DNA of 64,000 nt from Pseudocercospora fijiensis CIRAD86 (Eukaryota > Ascomycota > Dothideomycetes > Mycosphaerellales > Mycosphaerellaceae), in NCBI RefSeq assembly GCF_000340215.1, contig NW_006921532.1:1147397-1211396 (forward strand), read 5' to 3'. The notes under the pieces are model-generated. The model had not been told where the DNA came from. It saw nothing but the letters and a program-made list of their open reading frames with translations, and did not search any database. Below are positions 25,183 through 39,180 of this stretch, one piece after another (position 1 is the stretch's first letter; each line of letters opens with the position of its first letter). The translations under genes and the position numbers were made by a program.

Positions 25183-26259
25183 CTAGTAGAAAGCTGGAGG
25201 CTCGTGGCCTGTCTTCTCCTTGATCACTCGACTAGTCAGCTCCATGAGTTGTTCTCCCAGCTCTTCGTTCCTCGCAAGTTCGCTGCCTGCCTCGATTGCC
25301 GCGGGCGGACATATGTACTCGCCGCTGTTCTCAGTTTTGGTCACTGCGTAAAGCGTCGACAGAGCACCATCGAATTGATCCTTTTTAAATTGCTCCAACA
25401 CCAACGACATTCCGTAGCCTGCAAGCGGATACGGTTCATGGATATCGTCTTTGCTCATCTTCGTCGACACAATGCCAGGATGCGTGGCATTGGCTAGAAT
25501 TCGTGGGTTGTCCCTGGTCAGATGTCGGGCTAGATATTTGCTATAGAGAACGTTGGCTAGCTTTGCACGGCCATACTGTGCCAACGGTCCATAATCCTTG
25601 TTGAGTTCATTCAGATCCGCGAATGAGGTCTCCTTGGGGGCAGATTCATGAGCATTAGATGCCTGATTCGATATTCGTACAATGTGGCCATCACTTGCCG
25701 TCTTCTTGAGCAGTGGTAAGAGATGTGACGTGAGAAGAACATGACCGAAATGGTTCAGCGCCATGTGTCTGTCCACTCCGTAACTTGTATGCTCAGCAGT
25801 CATGATACCTCTGCCTGCGTTGTTCACCAATATATCGATCCGATCTGTGGAATTCTTGATCTGGTCCGCTATGCTAGGAATCTTGTCCCAGGCAGCGAGG
25901 TCGCACTGTATCCACGAAGTCTTGTCCGCCTTGTCATCTCCAAGCTCTTTGCGGACGGCATCTCGCGCTTTGCCAACAACTTCCTTGGATGTGGAAAGGA
26001 TGAATACGCGATTGATGTTCTTCGAAAGTAGGGTGTAAGAGACTCCATATCCAATTCCTGTGGAGAATGTCAATTCATGGGCGTCAGATACATGCTGATG
26101 TGACTGACCCTCGCTACCGCCGGTGATGACTGCTACCTTCCCACTTTGGTCTGGAATATCATCGCTACTGAACTTCGTATGAGAAGGTGCAATCTTGTGG
26201 GCCACACCTCCCAAGTTTTCGGAAAGGGTCGAAGCGGCGGCATTGATCGCTGAGCTCAT
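25183..26259 (-). CDS. Short-chain dehydrogenase/reductase (classical SDR)
   Basis: NAD(P)-dependent oxidoreductase of the retinol-dehydrogenase/WWOX-like SDR group. Exons 26259-26109 and 26057-25183; 341 aa. The intron 26108-26058 (GTCAGT...CCACAG) splits the cofactor motif and restores TGGSEGIG (46-53). Other motifs: LVNNAGRG (128-134), Ser180/Ser184 in ISNQAS, and the catalytic YGRAK (Tyr212, Lys216). The 51-nt intron contains no in-frame stop, so unspliced mRNA would encode an inactive protein with 17 residues inserted in the Gly-rich loop. Start at ATG 26259 (MSSAINAAAS). It is the last intact gene before the RIP block, whose edge lies about 380 bp upstream. Confidence 0.92.
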   Translation of the reverse strand: MSSAINAAASTLSENLGGVAHKIAPSHTKFSSDDIPDQSGKVAVITGGSEGQSHQHVSDAHELTFSTGIGYGVSYTLLSKNINRVFILSTSKEVVGKARDAVRKELGDDKADKTSWIQCDLAAWDKIPSIADQIKNSTDRIDILVNNAGRGIMTAEHTSYGVDRHMALNHFGHVLLTSHLLPLLKKTASDGHIVRISNQASNAHESAPKETSFADLNELNKDYGPLAQYGRAKLANVLYSKYLARHLTRDNPRILANATHPGIVSTKMSKDDIHEPYPLAGYGMSLVLEQFKKDQFDGALSTLYAVTKTENSGEYICPPAAIEAGSELARNEELGEQLMELTSRVIKEKTGHEPPAFY

Positions 26260-26640
26260 GGGTGCGAATGTTTTGAGGTTTCCGAAAGTGTTGATGCTGC
26301 TGTTGTGAGTGTAGACCGAGTGCAGAACCCACGCATCACAAATAATCGAGACATCTGTATGTATATGCACCTACGGTGCACAATTCCATTAGTCTGTCGT
26401 TACACATTGTGACGCGCTCTGGTCATTCACGCGTCATGAATAGAGTCGTGATGTCAGTATGAATGTTGAGGGATCGCTCCATTCCAAGCAACCAAATCGC
26501 GCGTGCTCATTGAGAGGAGAGGGTCATGTTTGTGTACGATCTGATGAACGAGAGGTTGTGAAGCCATGCTGTGTATTGTAAGGCAAAAGAGTTGGAAGCC
26601 ATAAGTGCTCGGCGAATGTTCACCCGAATTGGCACTAAAT
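26260..26640. other. SDR promoter and compartment border
   Basis: 381 bp of ordinary composition. Around 26640-26660 the sequence switches abruptly to TA-rich, CA/TG-poor DNA. Confidence 0.6.
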
Positions 26641-26998
26641 TCTTGGCGTTTAGCATATTACAAAAATCACATAATATAACAGCTACGAGTCTACGATGTT
26701 TTATTTTCTACAAGCCTATAAACAATTAAAAGCTAAATCTTAAAGCTCTACTATACTTAGGACTATAAAAATATAAAAAAGAATCGTCTTTATTAGACTA
26801 TATTCGCTAGGAATCGAACTATTTTACGATTAGTATAAAATGTACTATAGATTGTTATATTAGCAATCTAGGAATTACGATATAGCCGCTCGTAGGTATA
26901 ATATAAATATTAGAAAGTTAGGTATCTAGGTATATCCGGGCTTTTAATTTCTACTAACTAGACTCTAGAGGGCGCTTAGAAAGTCGTATATATTATAT
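26641..26998. other. Unclassified RIP-affected flank
   Basis: 358 bp of AT-rich sequence outside the leftmost LTR. Presumably an older repeat into which Gypsy-1 copy A inserted. No coding relic recognised. Confidence 0.45.
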
Positions 26999-27195
26999 TG
27001 TAAGAAGGGTTATGTTAGCAGGTAGATAGGGTAGTAGTAGGTATAAGTAGTATTCGATAAAGAACTAGGAGGAGAAGGAGGAAGGTAGGCTAGTTAGCCT
27101 AACGCTAAGCGCTAAGCCCTGCCTAAGGTACTAAGACCCTAGCTTTACTCGGCCTAATTATATGCTAGTTACGTGTAGCCCCTTTAGCCCTAATA
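26999..27195 (-). repeat. Gypsy-1 copy A 3' LTR
   Basis: About 197 bp, starting TGTAAGAAGGG and ending CCCTAATA. It aligns over its length with the LTRs at 39186 and 52851. Confidence 0.85.
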
Positions 27196-27357: not shown

Positions 27358-27681
27358 ATATCTAACTCTAACTGCGCTATCCTTATATATAATAAAGTAA
27401 TATATAACTACGAGAATTAAGGACTATCGACTAATTATAATACGAGCGCGTCTTCCCTACTATAATAGGTAGACGTACGAGGTATTGTAGCCCTGCCTCC
27501 GCTCTAAGTAATATCGTACCGAGTTCTTTACGTCTACTCTTAAAAGACCTAGAAATGTCTGCTCCGAGAGTTTGTCCGTTCCGAGGATTGTTCTTATTAT
27601 TATAAGGACTATTATTTACTATCGTAGTTTCACTAGCCCTAATTAGTTAGGTTTAGCAGCCTTTAAGTGTTAACTAATTAT
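27358..27681 (+). pseudogene. Plus-strand ORF relic antisense to Gypsy-1 (copy A, split by hAT)
   Basis: Begins with ATA where copy B has ATG (39535). Encodes xSNSNCAILIYNKVIYNY and a following region that stays alignable to copy B at protein level. Stops are TAA/TAG from CAR codons. The hAT transposon interrupts it. Family unknown. Confidence 0.35.
27674..27681. repeat. hAT target-site duplication, left (CTAATTAT)
   Basis: An 8-bp direct repeat, identical to 37199-37206, immediately outside the terminal inverted repeats. An 8-bp duplication is diagnostic of hAT insertion. Confidence 0.9.
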
Positions 27682-27711
27682 TAGACCCCGTAGTAGTTCG
27701 GTTTCCGAACC
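27682..27711 (+). repeat. hAT left terminal inverted repeat
   Basis: TAGACCCCGTAGTAGTTCGG and onward. It matches the reverse complement of the right end apart from transitions; about 20 bp is clear. Confidence 0.85.
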
Positions 27712-27820
27712 ACCAAACGTATATAGTTTGGTTTCTTAGCGGCGAACTAGCTCCCTAGTTCCGGTTTGGTTTTTTCGAACTATATAGATTCCTAGTTTGA
27801 ACTAGAGACTGTATTGGTTT

Positions 27821-28110
27821 TACTATAAGGACACTCTTATTCGACTGCCGGCTACGATTGCCGGCTATAATAGTAACTCTGTTACATTTACTACGCTCTT
27901 TTGCCGTTGCTAGGGCGTAGTTGCCGTTGCTAGGGCGTAGTTTTGCTATAAGGACACTCTTATTCGACTGCCGGCTACGATTGCCGGCTATAATAGTTAC
28001 TAGGTTGTATTTACTACGCTTTATTACCGTTGCTAGGGCGTGGTTGCCGTTGCTAGGGCGTAGTTGCCGTTGCTAGGGCGTAGTTACTGTTACCGGGGCG
28101 TAGTTGCCGT
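27821..28110 (+). repeat. hAT 5' tandem repeats
   Basis: Two copies of a block of about 120 bp. Each begins CTATAAGGACACTCTTATTC, contains a GCCGGC pair, and is followed by 2-5 head-to-tail copies of a 20-bp unit (TTGCCGTTGCTAGGGCGTAG). It lies just upstream of the first cargo gene and is a plausible promoter or transposase-binding region. Confidence 0.8.
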
Positions 28111-28251
28111 AGTTGCGAAAGCTTACCTATATAACGTTACGTAGGCGGCAACAATTAGGGCTTCGCGATATTCTTACACTTTCAACTTCTTCCTCTATAC
28201 CTATACCGATAATAACTACTATACGCTACGCCCCCGCCCCTTTCCCTTATA

Positions 28252-29640
28252 ATAGTAAGAGAGAAGCGCGCCGCGCGCTAAATAGAAGATAGAACTAAAG
28301 ACCGCGAGTTTGTTTTGCCTAAGCGTCTAACTAAAAAGCGTAAGACTAAAGAGGAGTACTCTACGAAGAAGAATTCCGTACGAGACCGCGAGAGAAAGGA
28401 TAAGATAGATAAGGATAAAAGAGCTAAGGATAAGAGAAGAAAGGCGCGGAATAAGGCATTCTATCGATAGCTAGCGCCTATAGAAAAAAGTGAAGGTTGG
28501 AATAAGAAGACAACCTAAGAGAAGGCTAAGAGGAGGAAAGAATTGCGGCCAGTTTTCGAGCGTAAAGTTCTAGTAGCGTAAGTTAATCTAGCTAGCGGCC
28601 GTAGCTAGTAGCTATAGCCGGCAGCCGTAGCCGGCAGCTATAGCCGGCATATTTTTCTTTAACACGTTAACTAATAGTATTCAGACCTATAGTCGCTACC
28701 TCTATCGATACGACCGATAGTAACGGAGATGTTTAGATAGCCGAGAACAACAATGCTAGAGTTTAGGATGCCGCGACAGAGCTTAATGCTACGAATAAAG
28801 GAACTGAAAAAAGCGAGGAGATACTATACGTCGATCTAGTAATAGGTACAGTCTTAGGGCCTAACGCTATAGACGATAAGCGCTAGGAGTAGATCGAGTA
28901 TAGTTAAAGAGACGAGATACTAGTAAAGGGCTAAGGCATAAGTCCTATTAATCTAGAAAATTATAGTTAAAGCTACTACGAAAAGCTAGCAAGGATTAGA
29001 ATCGAGACTAGTCGTCTTTATATCCTCGATATAGAGTAGAAGTTTCTTTATTAGTATTAGAGCGAAGCCTTTGCGTCTATAAAGGCAAAGTGGCTTGCGA
29101 TTAATGCGATCGGGGCTAGGTATCTAAGGACGGCAGAAGTGTTACTATAGGAGGAAGGGGTATAGGTAATTATTCTATACTCGGCATATATAGCCGGCGT
29201 TCGTAGCCGGCAGATACTAACAGTTAAACAGAAAGCGTTTCTCGAAGGTAGAGTGCTACTGCTATATAAAATCTTTACTAAGGTAGAGAGGGCTTGTATC
29301 CGGAATCTAAGCTGCTAGTAGGATAGGTTAGCGTTAGAATTCTCTAAATCTCTATATAAGCCTCCGAAGGATTACCCGTTTTAGCGATACGGCTTTATCT
29401 CGACTACTCCGCAGGTACCTAAAGAAGCTCGAGCGCTCTTTAAGGTCTTTACTAAGAAGCGGAAGGAGTTCGAGGATTAGGATTGGTTAATAGAGCTATT
29501 AGTTAGTCTTAGGTTTCGTAGTTAGACTCGGCCTAAGCATTTGCTTATCGAGTGTCTTATACCGAAAGAGGATGGATTAAGACTAAAAACGAGCTTAGAT
29601 TCGTTAGGTATAGTAGCTCGGTTCCGTTAGTAGGAGAGAG
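28252..29640 (+). pseudogene. Unrecognised cargo gene 1 of the hAT element
   Basis: Three exons inferred: 28252-28577, 28685-29165, 29232 to about 29640. Introns: 28578-28684 (GTAAGT...TTCAG) and 29166-29231 (GTAATT...ACTAAC...ACAG), both with GCCGGC arrays and both restoring frame. The product is about 400 residues: a highly basic N-terminus (KKRKTKEEYSTKKNS; KDKRRK) suggesting a nuclear or nucleic-acid-binding protein, an acidic-helical middle (SEEILYVDLVIGTVLGPN), and a C-terminal part with KAFLEGRVLLLYKIFTKVER and YGFISTTPQVPKEARALFKV. The start ATG appears as ATA. I do not recognise the family. In-frame stops are all TAG/TAA. Confidence 0.6.
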
Positions 29641-29775
29641 CCGCCGTATAGAAGGCAAAATTCAGGTAGTTAGGGTAGCTAGGAAAGAAATTCTAGTGGT
29701 TAGGCTAGCTAGGGTAGCTAGGAAAAAAAATCTGGTAGTTAGGTAGCTAGGAAATAAAAAAAAAAGGTAGCTAGC
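29640..29775 (+). repeat. Short direct repeats, GGTAGCTAGGAAA type
   Basis: Imperfect tandem units of TAGTTAGGGTAGCTAGGAAA with A-runs, between cargo gene 1 and the transposase gene. Probably the gene 1 3' end and spacer. Confidence 0.6.
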
Positions 29776-29895
29776 TATTTACTGCCTAGCTATTCCTAAC
29801 GATACGATACTATAAAAGAAAGGGTGTTTCCCTACAGCTACTAGTATATATCTACTACTCCTAAGTCCTTACCTTACCGTACGAAACCTTAAAAC

Positions 29896-32800
29896 ATGCC
29901 GACCGACATTATATATACACTAGGCGCTACACTAGGAAGGGTAACAACGAGACGATAGTCGAAACAGTCTAGTATACGAGCGAGATTGCGACAACGTCGA
30001 GAGGAGGTCGTATACTTACCTTCGAGCCTATCGAGTCCTAGACTACGATTAGGGCTAGATTTATCCTCTCCGAATCCTAGTAGTAGGAATTCATTATAGG
30101 GTACTACTACCTAGTCCTTACCTTTACGGAGTCTAAGTAGAAGGTTGTTCGGAGACATAAGAATATCGAGTATTAACCCGGAAATCTTCGAAAAGGCTAG
30201 CTAGGCGTATCTTTAGAAACCCGAGTATATAGAGCAGTTCAATTAATAGGTCTATAAGATATAGTTCCCTTTATACTTACGTTCGAAGGAGTATAAACTC
30301 CGGAAGTACTCGATGCGATAGGGGAGTAAGGAGCGAACGGACACATTCTAGAAGTTCTTTATAGAGGGGGTATTGCACCGTTATACGACTTCTCGACTTA
30401 AAGGTTAACTAGTAATTGTCTGCAACTTCTGCGGTTTAATCTTGAAACACCCGAAACTAGGGGATAGGAACTTATCGCCTACGAACTATCTCTATTCTAA
30501 ACGGTATCGGGAATCTTAAGGAGAGAGGAGAGTTAATATAGATATAGCGTTCTAGAAAGAGGTATGTCTTCTAAAATGCCGGCTATAGCTGCCGGCTATA
30601 GCTGCCGGCTATAGATTCCGGCTACCTAAATTAACCGTAGAGATCTAGCTAATTATTATAGGCTACGCTTAAGGAAGCTCTAGGATTAAAGGCTACCGAT
30701 TTCTCCCCCGAAGACTTTAAGCAACTAGCAAACGAAATACTAGCTACAAACGGTCTTCCGGAAGACTTCTACGAAAGGGAGTCTATATAGAAGATATACC
30801 TATGTCTTACAAACTACCCTCCCCTATTTCTCGGCGCGACAACCTAGCGTATTATATTCGAAAAGAACAAAGAGGCTGCGTTAGACGATATTCGGGAGAT
30901 CCTCCGTAATACTCGCCGAGTAGCTATTACTATCGATAGCTAGTTAAGCCGGACTATAAGAGCCTCCTTCCTCTCGATTATACTATACTTTATTAATTCG
31001 GATTAGAAACTCTAGGAACTCATAATCGGATTCCCTAAAATTCTAGGTTCCTATACTAGTAAGGATATAGCGAAGCTTGTCTATACGGTAATAGACAGGG
31101 TTAGCGTAATAACGAAACTAATCTCGATTACTACGGACAACGCTAGTAATAATCGAACATTATATAAGGCGTTGTATATACAATTTACTCGCATATATCT
31201 TTAAAATCACTAATTGTATCGATAGGGTCGAGTACGTAGAGGAGATTATAAGGTCTATAATCTAGCTTAATCTTCCGAATATTAAGCTCGCTACGATTCC
31301 GGATACGCACGACAATACGCACGATGATAACGATAAAGAGGAGCCTATTAATAGCCCTAGCCCTATTAAATCGGAGCCGACGTCGTTGCTAGTTATATCC
31401 CTATAGAAGTTTCCCTACCTCGCTTATATAGTTCAAATCGCGATCCGAGCCCTCTTTAAGACGCTTAAAATTGTACTATTAAACGACGACTAATAGAAGA
31501 TCCTAGATAAGGATAAAGCAAAGTCGAAAGTCGAGAAACTTATTATAGCAATGAGACGGGATAAGGCAGAGAGCCTCGCTCTCGTTTTATATAAGGTATA
31601 ACTTTTGTCCGTAGCCGGCACCTATAGCCGGCAACCTAGTATAGTTCTAACTCTTTTTCTCTAGCTTCGTCGTCTAGCAATATATACGAACTCGAGCTTA
31701 TAGAGATATAACCGATTCGAGGCTATTTAAAAGAACCTAATCGAGCGCCCTAAAACCGATGCCTAGAATATCGTATAGAATAAGCGATAGCAAAAGCGGC
31801 CTCCTTAGCGCCTACTCCGTTTTACCTAAGACGTTAAGACCCGGTTCGATTCGACTTTCTATATAGTTACGAAGGGATATACTTTACGTACCGCTCTCGA
31901 GATCTATTAGAGTTCCGAGGGTATTAAGTAGCTCGGCCTTACCGCCGCCGAATAGCGCTAAGCAGAGTATCTCGTCGATATTAGTAAGCATTACGCGAAG
32001 GTTACTGCTACGATTAGAAGAACCCGAGGACCGACGATCTACCTTGTCTTTACGTACTATAACTAGCTCTTTAACGAGCTCGAGGAAACCGTAGCTAAGC
32101 TAGCTAGGAAGAGCGTTCCCTAGAAAGTAGCTATAACGAAAGCTATAGACACCTCCTATACTAAGTTGTATAAATATTACAGTACTACCTTTAACTCGTT
32201 CGGGGATATCTATAGCATTACGTACTTACTTAACCCGGTAGAAAAGGATATATACTAGCAGAGGCCGGAATAGAAGGCGGACGAGGTATAGCCGAAGTAT
32301 TACTAGACTATTCTAGAAAAGATGTTCTACGAGCGTCGGAAAGAAACTAGTCTAAATACAGCTCCTATAAAGAAAAAGAAGGTTTAGAAGGCTCCGATAT
32401 TATACCTGTTTCGTAGGTAGGAAGTAGAGGCAGAAGAGGAAGCAACTACTAAAGTAAATAAAGAAGAGTTCGATCTCTATCGGCGCGCGAGTAAGTACAA
32501 ACCCGTAGGCTCGGAAAGAGGGCTAATAATCTCTAGATCTTACCGGTCTTCTAGACGAATTCGGAGACGATATTCTCGCTATATAGTAGCGGTTAGAGCC
32601 TAAGTTTCTAACGATAGCGTCGGTCGCTCGGGACGTCCTCGCTATCCCGAGCGTAGGTATAGGCTATAAGAGGTCTTTTAGTATCGCTCGTTACTAGGGC
32701 CGCTTTAATCGAATATACTCGCCTACTACCTTCGAATCTATTATAGTATTCCGATACTATCTCCTCTACTAGAATCGCTAAGGTAGGTTACTAAAGATTA

Positions 32801-33008
32801 TACTAAAGGAGTTGATCGAGGAATTAGAAAACCTTAAGATCGAAGAAACCTAGGAGCGCGAAGAGAATGCGAAATTTAGTCTAAGCGAAACCCTAATTAG
32901 CGATAACGAAGAGGAGGAGGGCGGAGGTAGAAGGCGATACCGGGTCGAGAAGCGGAAACGTATATAGGCTTAGAGTAGCTTTAAGGAGACGAAGCGTTTA
33001 CGTATAAG
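29896..33008 (+). pseudogene. hAT transposase (BED finger + hATC), RIP-inactivated
   Basis: Starts at ATG 29896. An unbroken frame (apart from TAG/TAA) runs 525 nt to a BED-type zinc finger (IVCNFCGLILKHPK...YSKRYRE, 30415-30510). Intron 30562-30640 (GTATGT...CCGTAG, phase 0) and intron 31596-31664 (GTATAA...TTCTAAC...CTCTAG, phase 0, joining ALVLYK / LRRLA) both contain GCCGGC arrays. The RNase H-like core includes TIDS near 30945 and ITTDNASNN near 31130. The C-terminal dimerisation domain is near 32560-32760 (IASVARDVLAIPSVGIG, then SFSIARY). A small frameshift is needed near 31190. This is the mobilising enzyme of the element, now dead. Confidence 0.9.
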
Positions 33009-33180
33009 GTAATATAGCCGGCGTATATAGCCGGCATATATCCGAAATGTGTTTCGAATTCCTAGGACCTAAATAGACTAGTTGCTATAGCAACCGACCC
33101 CGCTTACCTGCGGACTATTTCTAATTCTCTATTCGCTCTTCCTCTCCTTCTTCCCTTTCCCTATATTCTTAAAGACAAAT

Positions 33181-34560
33181 ATGCCTTAAGGATTCGGCTC
33201 TTCGGGCCTTCCTAAGCCGGCTGCCTCCCCTTCCTTAAGCTACTATCCTTTATTCGAATCTGACGATAACCTAATAAGGCGGTTTAATAGAAGACTATTT
33301 GTTCTAGAAGGCAAGAAGCATTAATGTCTCCTTACGATTATATGCTTATTAATTTCTAGGTCCTACCGATATACCCTCGTCGCCTAAACGCGTAGATAAA
33401 TATCTTTAGAGGCTAAAGGGCAAGGGTAAAGCAAGCTAAGTATAGGGAGACCGTAGCGAGAACGAGATATCGGAAGAGCAAGGCTCTCCGTAGTATATAC
33501 GAAGGAAGGGGGTTCCTCGGAAAATAGTACCGAAAAATAAGAAGGCTGTAGGTAGATAGGAGAAGGCTAAAAAGAGTAGGCGGACAAAGACTGTCGCGAA
33601 GAAAAGTTATCTTTCTATTAAAAGAAAGGGAATAAGGCAGGACTCGACGATAAAGAAGCGGCGCTTTAAACTAGGTACTATTGCCCTTCGCTAGATCCGG
33701 CTTTTCTAAAATAAAAGAGGGACCGAGCTTTTAATCCCTAAGACTCCCTTCTAGCGACTCGTCCGAGAAATTACATTAGATTTTCGGTCTAGTATGCGAT
33801 TTACGGCTAAGGCGATTAGTGCTCTTTAGGAAGCTACGGAGGCATTTCTCGTAACCGAGCTTGAGCTTTTAAACCTCCTTGCTATCTATACGAAGCGGGT
33901 TACTCTTTAAAATAAAGATATACAGCTTCTAGCTAAAATTCGGCGTCGGTTTATAGCGGATTAGTTGGAAATTGTATTTAGTCGTTAGATTAACCTAGGA
34001 GGAGGCCCATTTTCGTATCGTTTTGCCGGCTATAGGTGCCGGCTATATTTCTGATTTTATCTCCGCGCCGTCCCTAAATCTAAGGTACGAAGTAGAAACC
34101 TAACGCTCTATATTTACCCGGCTATTATAGAGACGAGCTACATTCAGATTAGTTTCTTCGTATATCGCGACCTAGCGGGTAGTAAGCGAAAGGGCGATAG
34201 AACGTTTATAATACGTCTCTATTTAGACCTAAAACACAAAGGTCCTAAGGAGCCCTAGTATCCTAACTATAAGGAGATTCTTTAGCATTAGCACTTTGAT
34301 CCTCTATACTACGAGGCAGATAGCAAGCCTACGAGAGAGAAACTTTAACGAGAAATTCTCTATAATACGTAGCGCTATTGCATAGCTATAGATACGCACT
34401 AAGTCCGGTAACTCGAAGAAGAATTAAGACAGCGTATTAGCGACCGAGGAGGAGATCGATAGTATACTAGTAGAGTCGAGGTCTTATAAGCGAAGTATAA
34501 GATAATATAGGCTCTTAGTCGTATAGAGTAACGTACTATATAAATAACTAGGCGTGCTAC
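33181..34560 (+). pseudogene. Histone H3-like gene A with N- and C-terminal extensions
   Basis: ATG 33181; exon 1 to 33310; intron 33311-33359 (GCAAGA...TTCTAG); exon 2 to 34014; intron 34015-34095 (GTATCG...GTAG, two GCCGGC); exon 3 from 34096. These phases give one continuous frame. After a basic tail (RKIVPKNKKAVG; KKRRFKLGTIALR) the histone fold occupies 33653-33952: IRLF-x-NKRGTELLIP, KTPF-x-RLVREITLDF, MRFTAKAISAL-x-EATEAFL, LLAIYTKRVTL-x-NKDIQL (x = TAA/TAG). Three of the five stops lie at H3's conserved Gln55, Gln68 and Gln93. Two extra residues sit before the alphaN-alpha1 region. The frame then continues about 150 residues (FFVYRDLAGSKRKGDRTFII; YPNYKEILQHQHFDPLYYEA with TAG read as Q), unlike any histone. 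Fungi normally have H3 and CenH3 only; this is neither. The exact end is unknown. Confidence 0.82.
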
Positions 34561-35243
34561 TCTTATTTACTTACGACCTATATCCTAGGATGCTCTTCTC
34601 GTACTTTTTATACTCTTTTCTAATACCTCACCTATAAGCGCTCCGCGACAACCGAGTGAATATAAGCTGTAGGGTTTCCGCTCGGTACCTTAGCCTCCGA
34701 GATAGGGCGGAGTTGAATTTAGAGCGATAGTCGGCACCCGTAGCCGGTATATAGAGACGGTAGTAGGCCTTTTTCTGCTAAATAACTAGCTTGTTTAGTA
34801 TAGCCTACCTGATATTTCTTATATTTACTAGCAATAGGCCTAGGTTACTTATAAGATTACTATAGCTAGTAAAGGCATTACTAAAGAATATCTATACTAT
34901 AGTAGGATACTATTATCACGCCGGCTATTTATTAAAAGGAGGCTTTCGCCTATTACTATGCCGGCTATATATACCGGCTATATTTCAAAGTCTGCCGTAC
35001 CTGCCTTTTTTAGCCGTGCCTGCCTTCTTTCCTTACTCTAACGTTACTATAATGTAGGCTTGCGCGAAGCTTACTCTATTACCTAGCGATACCGCGATAC
35101 TACCTCTCTCGCTATATTCAACCTTCGCATCGATACCTATACCTCTACGCTCTATATCTACTACCTCCGTAACACCCTCGCTCCGCGCGCGCCTTCGTAT
35201 ACCTTCGTAACGCACTTTTTTCCTTAATTCGACGACTTTTATA
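34561..35243. other. Spacer between the two H3-like genes
   Basis: About 680 bp, TA-rich, with three GCCGGC-type clusters (34730-34748, 34920-34925, 34960-34978). Presumed promoter of H3-like gene B; part of it could be the 3' end of gene A. No clear coding relic. Confidence 0.45.
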
Positions 35244-35901
35244 ATAGCGAATCCACTTAACTAAGTTACGACGCCTCGCAAGAAGGGACCTACTACTTCT
35301 ACGGGTCGCAATAAGATCGGAAATAAAGGAACGAGTATAGTACATTAACGCAAGATAGCTGCTACTGCCGCCGCTAGCTCCGGTGCTAGAAAGGGCGTCG
35401 CGAGCAAGGCTCCGCGCAAGACAACGGCGGGCAAGGCTCTATATAAGACGACAATTAGCGCTTCTACTACTAGTAGCAATCGTGCGAAGCGTCGATAGCG
35501 CCTAGGAAGTAAGTCCTATTTATAGCCGGTAGCGTAGCCGGCAGCGTAGCCGGCATTCTTACTGTCTTTTTACTAATCCTTCTTTAGCCGTAGCCCTCCG
35601 TAAGATTCGGCAGTATTAGAAGAGTTCTAAGCTCCTAATCCGCAAAACTCCTTTCTAACGACTTGTTCGCGAAATTGCCTAGGATTATAGAATAGACCTT
35701 CGCTTCTAAGCCTCCGCGATAGGCGCCCTTTAAGAGGCTATAGAAGCCTACCTAGTTCGTATCTTCGAATGTATGTTTCTCTTCTACCTCTTTTCGGACT
35801 ATACTAATACTATTTTAGCGGTCAACCTTATAGCTATCTACGCGAAGCGTATAACGATTATAGATAAGGATTTTAAAGCACTCGATTAGATCCTAAAAGG
35901 C
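35244..35901 (+). pseudogene. Histone H3-like gene B
   Basis: The start codon appears as ATA at 35244 (ATG to ATA). Exons 35244-35508, 35588-35770 and 35819 to about 35901 or beyond. Introns: 35509-35587 (GTAAGTCC...TACTAAT...TTTAG, with a GCCGGC array) and 35771-35818 (GTATGT...TACTAAT...TTTTAG). Both junctions fall in frame at conserved H3 positions (RLGT|VALRKIRQY; IFE|SVNLIAIYAKRVTI). The tail contains SKAPRKTTAGKA, echoing the H3 tail. The five in-frame stops in the core fall exactly on the five glutamines of canonical H3 (Gln55, 68, 76, 85, 93): Y-x-KS, PF-x-RL, IA-x-DY, RF-x-AS, AL-x-EA. It ends near DKDFKALD-x-ILKG, with the loop-1 length of H3 rather than CENP-A. It is divergent from gene A, so not a recent duplicate. 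Confidence 0.9.
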
Positions 35902-36233
35902 TAGAATGTCTATATTCGAGATAGTGCTAGATAGGATAGATATACTAGTAGGAAGGATGTTCGTAGTGTCGTCTATAAGCTTTTCTATATACGAAATGAG
36001 CCGCTATTATACGGCGCTATATACCGCGCTCTAAATACTCTCTAAGCATATATATATAGTACAGTATGCTTTATTAGCCGTACGGAATAGAAGTCTCCCA
36101 AAATCCCGTTAGTACTAAGGAGTAAAAAGGCCGGCTACGCTGCCGGCTACGCTGCCGGCTACGCTGCTAGCTACGCTACTAGGTTTTTTAAAGAACTAAA
36201 AGAAGATAGACATTCCGGTTGATTTGTATTAGT

Positions 36234-36768
36234 TTAGATTTTTATAAAAAGAAAATAGGGAAAAATAAGGAAGGTTGAAGAGCCTAATAGTTATAGTTAT
36301 AGGTACTATCCCTGTTTTCTAGAGCATATTATACACCTGCCTTCGCAACTCTACCTAATACTCCCTCTAAATATCCTTATACTCTACCTACTAGAAATTC
36401 AACTAGGTACCTAGACCTACAGCTGCCTCTATATCTTTCACTATCTTCTATAGGTTGAAGGCCTCTTCTATAGCAGCCTCTACCTCCTTATACAATACGA
36501 AGTTACTACCTACCCTACCCTTTATATCTCCTAAATAACTAAGAGTTCTAAGGAACGAACTAGCATTCGGCCTTAGTATAGCGAGTGACTAGTGGAACGT
36601 TCTATAGAGCTGCCTTATAGCTCTTTTATATACTATACCGATACCGAGGGAGGAGCTATCCTAGTACTTAATGTTGTCGAATAGTTCGGTAGGAAAGTGT
36701 ATAAACTTCTTAAGGAGGAGGACTTCTAGGGAAATCGATAAGTTCTGCCTAGATCTAGATAAAGACAT
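36234..36768 (-). pseudogene. Small opposing cargo gene of the hAT element
   Basis: A minus-strand frame of about 178 codons from ATG 36768 to TAA 36234, with only a few TAG/TAA at probable Gln codons. N-terminus MSLSRSRQNLSISLEVLLLK, then FPTELFDNIK, LRTLSYLGDIKGRVGSNFVL and a helical end (YKEVEAAIEEAFNL). Mostly alpha-helical by eye; no family recognised. It is the only gene read against the others in this transposon. Confidence 0.5.
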
Positions 36769-37168
36769 TCTACTAAGCAGTTAGGGAATTGAACCGTAAA
36801 CGAAAGGATGAAATTTATACCTAAGGAGTATAGTTTCCGAACTGAACTATAATGCCTTGTATATGTATATATGCTTTTGATTGGTTAGTGCCCTTAGCTA
36901 ATTGTCTATAGATTTGAGGTTATATAAGTACCTTTATATAACTACGTAGCCTAAGTAGGATTCGAAAATTCTATAAGTACTAAGGACTGAAAATGCCGGC
37001 TACGCTGCCGGCCACACTGCTAAGTCTTACAAAGGGCTTACTTGAAGCTACGTATATATTCGTACACTTCTTAAAAACCGATAAATTATATAGTTCGAAC
37101 TAGCTACTTATATAGTTGCTTAGCAAACCAACCTAAACTAAACTAGAGTTTCGGCTTAGCAAACTAAA

Positions 37169-37198
37169 CTAAACTAACCCGAACCACTGCGGGGTCTA
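37169..37198 (-). repeat. hAT right terminal inverted repeat
   Basis: Ends CCGAACCACTGCGGGGTCTA, the reverse complement of the left end with RIP-type changes at two or three sites. Confidence 0.85.
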
Positions 37199-37206
37199 CT
37201 AATTAT
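37199..37206. repeat. hAT target-site duplication, right (CTAATTAT)
   Basis: An exact 8-bp copy of 27674-27681. After it the Gypsy-1 copy A sequence resumes (alignable with 39830 onward in copy B). Confidence 0.9.
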
Positions 37207-37989: not shown

Positions 37990-39180
37990 TGTTCTTTATA
38001 CTAGTCTAATACTTATCTAATAACTTAGTTATATCTTTAAAAGAGGCTTTAGCTTCCTACGAGTCCTATTTAGGTAAATAGCCTTGCTATCTTAATAGGT
38101 ACTCCTTCTTGCCTTTCCTAGTCCGGTACTATAGGATACGTTCTATAGACTACAGCTCTTTACTATCCGCTAGTATGTCTTCGTATTTAGTAGAGGCTTC
38201 CTCCCCCTCGCGTAGGTAATATAGCTTAAGGAGGGATATATAGAAGGGATTATAGATAGTATAATAAGGAGGAAGCTATAACTAATAGGCCTATACGGAG
38301 GAGCCCTTAACTTCTCGAATACGGAATAGACTAATATATCTTAGTGCGAGCTTAGGCCTTGTTTTGCCGTTAGGTAATAGGTACTTACGGATGCGGAGGT
38401 TCTTAGTGCTTAGTATAACTATATCGCCTTGCTTAAAGGTTATCGGTGTGTAGTGTTTGTTATAATAGGCCTTCTAATAGGTCTAGGCCTTTGCTAGTTT
38501 GTTAGCTATCTTAGCGTAAATCTCTCGTATCTTTTGAACCCTCTTAATAGCTGCTAGTGTCTTAGGTGTTAGTACTTAACGCGCTTCCCTTTCCTTGCGC
38601 TCGGCCTCGAGCGATAGGGGGTCTTATAGCATAGTAGCGTTCTAGCCTATTATAGCTATATATAGCGAGACCTTAATTAATAAGTAGACACTGTTATTGT
38701 ATACGAATTTAGCTAGTTATAGGAGGTTAACCTAGTTATTAGGGTTCTTATTAATATAGCTGCGTAGGTACTACTATAGGGTAGCATTTTGCCTCTCGGT
38801 CTAGCTATCTATTTTTAGATAGAACGCTATAGATAGGCGATACTTAAGTCTTAGCTATAGGCATATCTTACTCTAATAGTAAGATATAAATGTCGAGCCT
38901 CGGTCGGAAACTATCCCTTTAGGGGTTCCCTAATAGCTATAGAAGATGTTGTTCTATAGTGCTTTAGCTATATTAATAGTAGTCTAATCCTTCCGAGTAG
39001 GAATATAGCGAGTACCCTTAGTAAATCGGTCTATAACGACTAGTATAGCGTTAAAGACGTCTCTACTTCCTTTTCGTTTAGTAGGGGGAAGACCTATAAT
39101 AAAATCTATTATAAGCTCTGCAAATAGCTTGTTAGGGATTAGTAATAAGGACAACTCGCTAAAAGGCTAATGCTTCGGTA
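37990..39180 (-). pseudogene. Gypsy-1 copy A pol 3' part: chromodomain and integrase relic
   Basis: The reverse strand gives a chromodomain-like end (ERIL-x-YRTRKGKKEYL, then QGYLPK) at 38000-38170, preceded upstream by integrase C-terminal sequence. It is cut by copy B at 39186. Confidence 0.75.

What the first reader, a model, noticed from the sequence alone, without database searches (positions are those of the whole stretch)
33181..35901. A hAT DNA transposon carrying two divergent histone H3-like genes
Between the terminal inverted repeats of one hAT insertion lie two separate genes whose translations are unmistakably histone H3 folds (PF-x-RLVREI, AL-x-EA-EA-LV, AIY-KRVT-KD). In gene B the five in-frame stops sit exactly on the five conserved H3 glutamines, so RIP of an intact H3-like gene explains them fully. 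A and B differ strongly from each other and from host H3, and both have introns joining in phase. I know of no described transposon family that encodes its own H3 variants. A working idea is that the element packages or marks its own chromatin, or targets H3 deposition sites, or evades silencing.
Basis: partly seen in the sequence, partly recalled or inferred. Interest (0 to 1): 0.97.

Follow-up and report, generated by a model that had tools for sequence, protein, structure and literature searches.

The report
Transposon carrying two histone H3-like genes
A mutated "jumping gene", repeated many times in the genome of what is likely the banana fungus Pseudocercospora fijiensis, carries two unusual histone H3-like genes; it is likely the element published in 2019 as having captured a host gene, but the sequences here suggest that both genes were likely working parts of the element that would have helped it manage its own chromatin.

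Summary
In detail: window 27682-37198 is a 9,517-bp hAT-type element with matching 8-bp target duplications, and two genes with histone H3 folds (A, B) lie between its ends. The claim that no such transposon is described is wrong: Dhillon et al. 2019 (PMC6710886) describe what is likely this family in Pseudocercospora fijiensis, and Manning et al. 2013 (PMC3538342) a similar case in Pyrenophora. Both call it transduplication (capture of a host gene). My data change the reading. Gene B has two predicted introns, one likely the "16-amino-acid insertion" of the 2019 paper; gene A has one. A and B are separate lineages outside host H3 and CenH3. Both occur in three diverged element subfamilies. 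Subfamily-shared indels keep the frame in exons (8 of 8) but not outside (0 of 7). A's fold changes about as slowly as the transposase pieces tested; B exon 2 shows no such constraint. B keeps an H3-like tail with K9, K14, K18, K23 and K27 in register in two of three subfamilies. So the H3 genes look like maintained genes of the element, not passengers. Their use, variant H3 softening silencing, is inferred. The element is already known; this reading is new relative to the sections I read.

The parts
27682..37198 (+). hAT-type element, 9,517 bp
   Evidence: sharp right boundary: alignments end at 37198 in 21 of 29 other copies and within 11 nt in the other 8; TIR; TSD
27674..27681 (.). left 8-bp target site duplication CTAATTAT
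   Evidence: identical to 37199-37206
37199..37206 (.). right 8-bp target site duplication CTAATTAT
27682..27701 (.). left terminal inverted repeat (20 bp)
   Evidence: 18 of 20 positions match the right end; the 2 differences are transitions
37179..37198 (.). right terminal inverted repeat (20 bp)
30890..31192 (+). part of the hAT transposase (catalytic region), with in-frame stops
   Evidence: tblastn with a hAT ORF of the same genome, 29% identity over 103 aa, E=8.2e-6 in a two-sequence database
32584..32688 (+). C-terminal dimerisation-like part of the hAT transposase
   Evidence: weak: PF05699 E=0.12, below its cut-off; tblastn 34% over 32 aa, E=0.63, in the right order
33181..33310 (+). 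gene A, predicted exon 1
   Evidence: reading frame and phase; ATG at 33181 kept in some copies shown and ATA in others
33311..33359 (+). gene A, predicted intron (GC..AG here, GTAAG..AG in L044)
   Evidence: two 1-nt subfamily indels; flanking exons in phase
33360..33961 (+). gene A, predicted exon 2: basic tail and H3 fold (fold 33674-33946)
   Evidence: Pfam Histone E=9.7e-24; subfamily-shared exon indels all multiples of 3
35271..35508 (+). gene B, predicted exon 1: tail with H3-like stretch; true start codon not settled
   Evidence: tail aligns to H3 tail: 3, 2 and 0 of 5000 shuffles as good for window, L010, L041, but 898 of 5000 for L044
35509..35587 (+). gene B, predicted intron 1 (79 nt here)
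   Evidence: GT in 34 of 35 rows, AG in 35 of 35; one codon from host H3 intron 2
35588..35770 (+). gene B, exon 2: H3 fold, first part
   Evidence: Pfam Histone; no indels in 39 sequences
35771..35818 (+). gene B, predicted intron 2 (48 nt)
   Evidence: AG in 35 of 35 rows; donor GT in 15, AT in 20 of 35 (AT fits RIP of TpG)
35819..35901 (+). gene B, exon 3: H3 fold, second part
   Evidence: transversions at third codon positions 9 of 12, p=0.004
27846..37002 (.). dispersed TGCCGGCTA repeats, mostly 12-13 bp apart in small clusters
   Evidence: 22 matches in the 64-kb window, all 22 inside the element, none starting in predicted A or B exons

Best explanation
This is a RIP-mutated 9.5-kb hAT-type DNA transposon, likely the family published from Pseudocercospora fijiensis, and it carries two divergent histone H3-like genes with predicted introns that were likely working genes of the element and would have acted by putting variant H3 into chromatin together with host H4. 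Shown: the element's ends and target duplications, the two H3 folds, their presence in three subfamilies, frame-keeping subfamily indels and low change in A's fold, and an H3-like tail in B in two of three subfamilies. Predicted from sequence: the introns. Inferred: that the proteins were made. Inferred and untested: that variant H3 from the element (B with K9/K27-type positions but altered S10 and an added N-terminus; A with a long basic tail) dilutes or changes host H3K9/K27 silencing over new copies, so that transposase can be expressed. RIP later put stops into every element copy listed.
For: Both genes lie inside one element: 16 of 20 sampled copies (of 29 in hand) have perfect 8-bp TSDs, as do the window copy and L039 (ends printed). 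A and B are both present in 39 of 39 sequences from subfamily 1 (window, L010-L038, L042, L046), subfamily 2 (L039, L040, L041, L047, L048) and subfamily 3 (L044, L045); L010-L038 had been picked for similarity to the whole stretch, but the nine others (L039-L042, L044-L048) were picked by their A-type histone match alone. Subfamily-shared indels are multiples of three in exons in 8 of 8 and outside exons in 0 of 7 (p=1.6e-4; 7.8e-4 without the two in A's inferred intron; 4.1e-4 with the repeat tract counted). No indel in either fold in 39 sequences. Transversions, which RIP does not make, are rarer in A's fold (10/273) than in flanks (20/122), p=3.8e-5; between window and L039 A's fold (0.037 per site) is like the two hAT transposase pieces (0.028, 0.032). 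B exon 3 has 9 of 12 transversions at third positions, p=0.004. B tail matches the H3 tail in subfamilies 1 and 2. A, B and canonical H3+CenH3 form three separate groups (UFBoot 100, 99, 92 on 8 of 39 A and 8 of 39 B sequences plus 8 others).
Against: No transcript or protein was seen. B exon 2 shows no third-position excess (8, 7, 9), B's and A's tails show none either (6, 14, 6 and 6, 7, 5), and B's introns change less than its exon 2 (2/126 against 24/182, p=2.3e-4), which plain purifying selection does not predict. A's third-position excess alone is not significant (5 of 10, p=0.21). A's tail match to the H3 tail is not significant (298 to 1677 of 5000 shuffles) and B's is not in subfamily 3 (898 of 5000). 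There are only three subfamilies, so few independent events, and exon limits are mine. Residues as well as stops may be RIP products. Dhillon et al. read the same family as a captured, inactivated transcript.
Confidence: 0.55

Rival explanations
1. Published view: a transcript (retrocopy) of the host housekeeping H3 gene was captured by a hAT element as a passenger, amplified, and destroyed by RIP with no function for the element.
For: Dhillon et al. 2019 report exon-exon junctions without introns in the H3-like sequences. Gene A has no intron at the host H3 intron-2 site in the frame read here. Of 150 scored histone matches (772 candidates), 148 have stops; the two stop-free ones are host H3 and, by my reading, host CenH3.
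Against: Predicted introns in B (two) and A (one); frame-keeping indels and slow change of A's fold across subfamilies; A and B group apart from host H3 rather than with it.
Confidence: 0.25
2. A genomic H3 gene with introns was captured once, duplicated inside the element, and the two copies then drifted; the coding signals seen are left over from a short functional phase or from the ancestral H3.
For: B intron 1 is one codon from host H3 intron 2 and in the same phase; B of the window is 65% identical to host H3; B exon 2 shows no codon-position bias.
Against: Frame-keeping indels arose between subfamilies, after capture; A's fold changes about as slowly as the transposase pieces; B exon 3 third-position bias.
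Confidence: 0.15
3. A is derived from the centromeric variant CenH3 and would serve centromere-like or kinetochore targeting.
For: The only fungal one of 2 accepted hits for A (of 37 candidates) is a histone-fold protein of Wilcoxina with CenH3-like features (the CenH3 label is my reading). A weak CENP-T_C match, E=0.0026, under its cut-off.
Against: A lacks the loop-1 insertion present in host CenH3 and in the Wilcoxina protein. Identity to host H3 (50/85) and to host CenH3 (47/85) is about equal, and A lies outside both in the tree.
Confidence: 0.05

Closest known systems
H3-carrying hAT family of Pseudocercospora fijiensis (Dhillon et al. 2019, Mob DNA, PMC6710886)
   Same: Length class (9.5-9.9 kb), 20-bp TIR, 8-bp TSD, one or two H3-like sequences per element, RIP, AT-rich location, 74-Mb genome with host H3 on number 6.
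   Different: The paper reads a 16-aa insertion in the second copy, reports no introns, and concludes that a host H3 transcript was captured. Here 48 nt (likely that insertion) and two further stretches have intron signals, and A and B look like two diverged, maintained genes.
H3L hAT element of Pyrenophora tritici-repentis (Manning et al. 2013, G3, PMC3538342)
   Same: hAT element with TIRs, transposase, another ORF and an H3-like gene that its authors place in neither H3 nor CenH3, with tail insertions.
   Different: 5.6 and 2.3 kb, one H3L per element, 26 copies mostly intact, ESTs reported; Dhillon et al. found no similarity of the hAT consensus sequences. I could not compare sequences.
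Core histone H3 and CenH3 of the same genome (L001, L043)
   Same: H3 fold with RLVREI-, KRVT/KRIT- and KD-type stretches; B of subfamily 1 keeps the ARK....KAPRK..A.KA.(R)K tail pattern.
   Different: A and B lie outside both in the tree; A has a long N-terminal extension and a 2-residue insertion near the start of the fold; neither has the CenH3 loop-1 insertion.

Membership tests
hAT DNA transposons | 8-bp target site duplication | tested here: met
   16 of 20 copies perfect, 1 with 4 mismatches, 3 with one end not found by the pattern; window and L039 also perfect
hAT DNA transposons | short terminal inverted repeats | tested here: met
   18 of 20 positions
hAT DNA transposons | hAT transposase with dimerisation domain | tested here: inconclusive
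   tblastn to a hAT ORF of the same genome E=8.2e-6 and 0.63; PF05699 E=0.12, below cut-off; by eye, none of the 47 PF05699 and 21 PF04937 matches lies in an H3-bearing copy
P. fijiensis H3-carrying hAT (Dhillon et al. 2019) | 9.5-9.9 kb, 20-bp TIR, 8-bp TSD, one or two H3-like sequences | tested here: met
   9,517 bp, two H3-like genes
P. fijiensis H3-carrying hAT (Dhillon et al. 2019) | hAT domain (DUF659) in the element | tested here: inconclusive
   no PF04937 match in window pieces; the paper itself found a hAT domain in 277 of 471 elements only
P. fijiensis H3-carrying hAT (Dhillon et al. 2019) | the paper's inference, not a defining feature: intron-free copy of an H3 transcript | tested here: inconclusive
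   sequence points against it: three predicted introns with splice signals; no RNA tested
histone H3 | H3 histone fold | tested here: met
canonical histone H3 | groups with host H3 | tested here: not met
   A and B fall outside the group of host H3, other H3 and CenH3
CenH3 | loop-1 insertion | tested here: not met
   alignment
P. tritici-repentis H3L element | homologous transposase and H3L | not testable with these tools
   I had no Pyrenophora sequence; Dhillon et al. report no similarity of hAT consensus sequences

The most novel reading that the evidence does not exclude
A lineage of hAT transposons carries its own histone system: two divergent, intron-bearing H3 genes kept under coding constraint beside the transposase, made to build or poison chromatin on the element's own copies and so escape silencing; the described 'housekeeping-gene capture' is in fact an old, selected chromatin function of the transposon.
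Probability: 0.4. Interest if true: 0.85.

Novelty: already known. Interest (0 to 1): 0.5.

Why it matters
Transposons are silenced through marks on histone H3 (general knowledge). An element that carries and maintains its own H3 variants would be a direct counter-move at the level of the histone itself, and would turn a published curiosity (gene capture) into a testable case of conflict over chromatin. The three predicted introns are cheap to check in RNA reads. The correction also bears on the 2019 conclusion that a transcript was captured.

Tried and rejected
Rejected: chance or a one-off insertion into one hAT copy (39 of 40 scored places hold the whole stretch). Rejected: CenH3 origin of A (no loop-1 insertion). 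Not supported: an H3-tail match for A (not significant), although its RTKT.AKKS reads like H3 residues 2-10. Led nowhere: database search with the A alignment (7979 hits, the best 120 listed mostly double H3 proteins of plants and animals), with gene A alone (2 accepted of 37 candidates) and gene B alone (3 of 14); no intact close relative was found, but those candidate lists are short. PF05699 and PF04937 searches of the genome found other hAT copies, not this family. A PDB search with the transposase C-terminus found nothing useful. No structure was predicted. Only 40 of 496 DNA candidates and 150 of 772 histone candidates were scored, so copy numbers here are lower bounds. Left out of the indel count: indels seen in one copy only, which do not keep the frame (A exons 1, 1; B exon 1 2, 2, 15, 16, 30), and repeat-number changes in B intron 1 (counted in the third test). 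I sorted indels into exon and non-exon by exon limits that I inferred; A's intron limits were set with the indels in view, hence the test without them. Indels rest on 13 of the 38 copies.

Full report
What is there. Window 27682-37198 is one element of 9,517 bp. Its ends are TAGACCCC.../...GGGGTCTA, identical at 18 of the first 20 positions, the two differences being transitions. It is flanked by CTAATTAT on both sides. In 29 other copies fetched with right flanks (L010-L038), alignments to the window stop at 37198 in 21 and within 11 nt in the other 8. For 20 of those 29 I fetched the left end: 16 of 20 have a perfect 8-bp duplication, one has 4 mismatches, and in three one end was not found by my pattern. 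A diverged copy, L039, has GAAGTAAA on both sides (ends printed).

Is it hAT? TIR and 8-bp duplications say so. The transposase is badly mutated. An 805-aa stop-free frame of the same genome with a hAT dimerisation domain (C2:4666571) matches 30890-31192 at E=8.2e-6 and a C-terminal stretch at E=0.63, in order, in a two-sequence database. Pfam gives PF05699 at E=0.12 only, and compared by eye the genome-wide PF05699 (47) and PF04937 (21) matches do not fall in the H3-bearing copies.

The two genes. Gene A's frame matches Pfam Histone at E=9.7e-24 and gene B's at 3.3e-18; the listed best PDB matches are H3 chains. A is predicted as 33181-33310 + 33360-33961, B as 35271-35508 + 35588-35770 + 35819-35901; B's start codon is not settled. 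B's two introns have GT in 34 of 35 and 15 of 35 rows (the other 20 read AT, as RIP of TpG would give) and AG in 35 of 35 twice (one row, L009, is the window copy itself). The second is 48 nt. Dhillon et al. describe a 16-aa insertion in the second H3-like copy of an element; 48 nt is 16 codons, so this is likely the same stretch. B's first intron is one codon from the host H3 intron 2, same phase. In A, an intron of 49 nt is predicted, GC..AG in the window and GTAAG..AG in L044.

Host. The genome has 73.94 Mb in 30 contigs, largest 11.88 Mb, with the stop-free H3 on contig 6. The P. fijiensis genome paper (PMC4981457, passages seen) gives about 74 Mb and a largest scaffold of 11.8 Mb; Dhillon et al. 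put the original H3 on scaffold 6. So the host is likely P. fijiensis; this is inferred.

Published knowledge. Of Dhillon et al. 2019 I read abstract, background, results, discussion and methods. They report 784 H3-like copies, 471 H3-bearing elements, 133 of 9.5-9.9 kb and 99 with TIR and TSD, all extra copies inactivated by RIP, and conclude that a transcript of host H3 was captured. Of Manning et al. 2013 I read passages and the first part of the transduplication section: a hAT with an H3-like gene, H3L, in Pyrenophora, placed by the authors in neither H3 nor CenH3, with ESTs. Six library searches listed no other paper whose title or abstract start describes a histone-bearing hAT element; not all hits were listed (20 of 25, 10 of 86) and I opened none of the others except the genome paper. 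I saw no supplements.

Three subfamilies. Beside subfamily 1 (window, L010-L038, L042, L046) there are copies matching the window at about 75-89% by piece (L039, L040, L041, L047, L048) and about 83-88% (L044, L045). All 39 have A and B. L010-L038 were picked for similarity to the whole stretch, so this is built in for them; the nine others were picked by their A-type histone match alone, and all nine have B. The stretch between A and B, about 34.1-34.87 kb, does not align between subfamilies 1 and 2, so A and B were likely kept while the DNA between them was replaced.

Were the genes maintained? RIP makes transitions, so I counted transversions and indels. Indels shared within a subfamily: in A and B exons 8 of 8 are multiples of three (3, 6, 21, 12; 3, 3, 6, 27); outside exons 0 of 7 (1, 1, 1, 1, 1, 17, 13), not counting copy-number change of the 12-13-bp repeat in B intron 1; p=1.6e-4, 7.8e-4 without the two in A's inferred intron, 4.1e-4 with the repeat tract. 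Indels seen in one copy only do not keep the frame (1, 1, 2, 2, 16 beside 15 and 30), as expected after RIP. In 39 sequences there is no indel in either fold. Transversions between subfamilies: A fold 10 of 273 sites, flanks 20 of 122 (p=3.8e-5), tail of A 18 of 222 (p=0.049). Window against L039: A fold 0.037 per site, transposase pieces 0.028 and 0.032. B exon 3: 9 of 12 at third positions (p=0.004); B exon 2: 8, 7, 9, no bias; tails of B and A: 6, 14, 6 and 6, 7, 5, no third-position excess; A fold 4, 1, 5 (p=0.21). Against simple constraint: B's introns (2 of 126) change less than its exon 2 (24 of 182), p=2.3e-4.

Origin. On the fold, with 8 of 39 copies each and 8 reference proteins, A, B and canonical H3 plus CenH3 are three groups (UFBoot 100, 99, 92). 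The tree is unrooted, so A and B may be sisters. Neither has the CenH3 loop-1 insertion. B's tail (copy L010) aligns without gaps to H3 residues 7-27, ARK....KAPRK..A.KA.RK, with K9, K14, K18, K23 and K27 in register and S10 replaced by G; 3, 2 and 0 of 5000 shuffles do as well for window, L010 and L041, but 898 of 5000 for L044, which has a 27-nt deletion there. A's tail is not significantly like H3's.

How it likely works. Step 1, shown: the element carried two H3-fold genes through at least three subfamilies. Step 2, supported: they kept their frames, and A's fold stayed about as slow as the transposase pieces. Step 3, inferred: proteins were made and paired with host H4. Step 4, inferred: B, with K9/K27-type positions but altered neighbours and no free K4 end, and A, with a long basic tail, altered or diluted silencing chromatin over element copies. 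Step 5, shown in part: RIP-type mutation then broke the copies (TpA/ApT 1.82 against 0.51); 148 of 150 scored histone matches have stops, and the two without are host H3 and, by my reading, host CenH3.

Verdict. The element is already known. The reading of A and B as maintained, intron-bearing genes of the element is new relative to the sections that I read, and is testable.

Noticed in passing
window 27846-37002: TGCCGGCTA (either strand) occurs 22 times in the 64-kb window and all 22 lie inside the element, mostly in clusters 12-13 bp apart, among them in B intron 1, never starting in predicted A/B exons. Role unknown; Dhillon et al. [quoted passage not shown]
   Followed up: partly
window 35509-35587 and 35771-35818: Gene B introns are more conserved between subfamilies (2 transversion sites of 126) than B exon 2 (24 of 182), p=2.3e-4. 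Unexplained.
   Followed up: partly
window 34100-34870: This stretch between A and B does not align between subfamilies 1 and 2; six copies (L002, L004, L006, L007, L008, L046) repeat 34355-34716.
   Followed up: no
L040 and L048: Copies of subfamily 2 with extra element-end sequence near one end, suggesting rearranged or nested ends.
   Followed up: no
window about 26000-27000: GC drops from about 0.49-0.59 to about 0.38-0.47, and to the right the DNA has RIP composition: an AT-rich block boundary.
   Followed up: no
window 38984-39166 (-): Short frame that reads like a Ty3/gypsy integrase core (motif recalled, not searched) just right of the element.
   Followed up: no
L069 (C2:4666000-4669600): A separate hAT copy with an 805-aa stop-free frame in the same genome.
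   Followed up: partly
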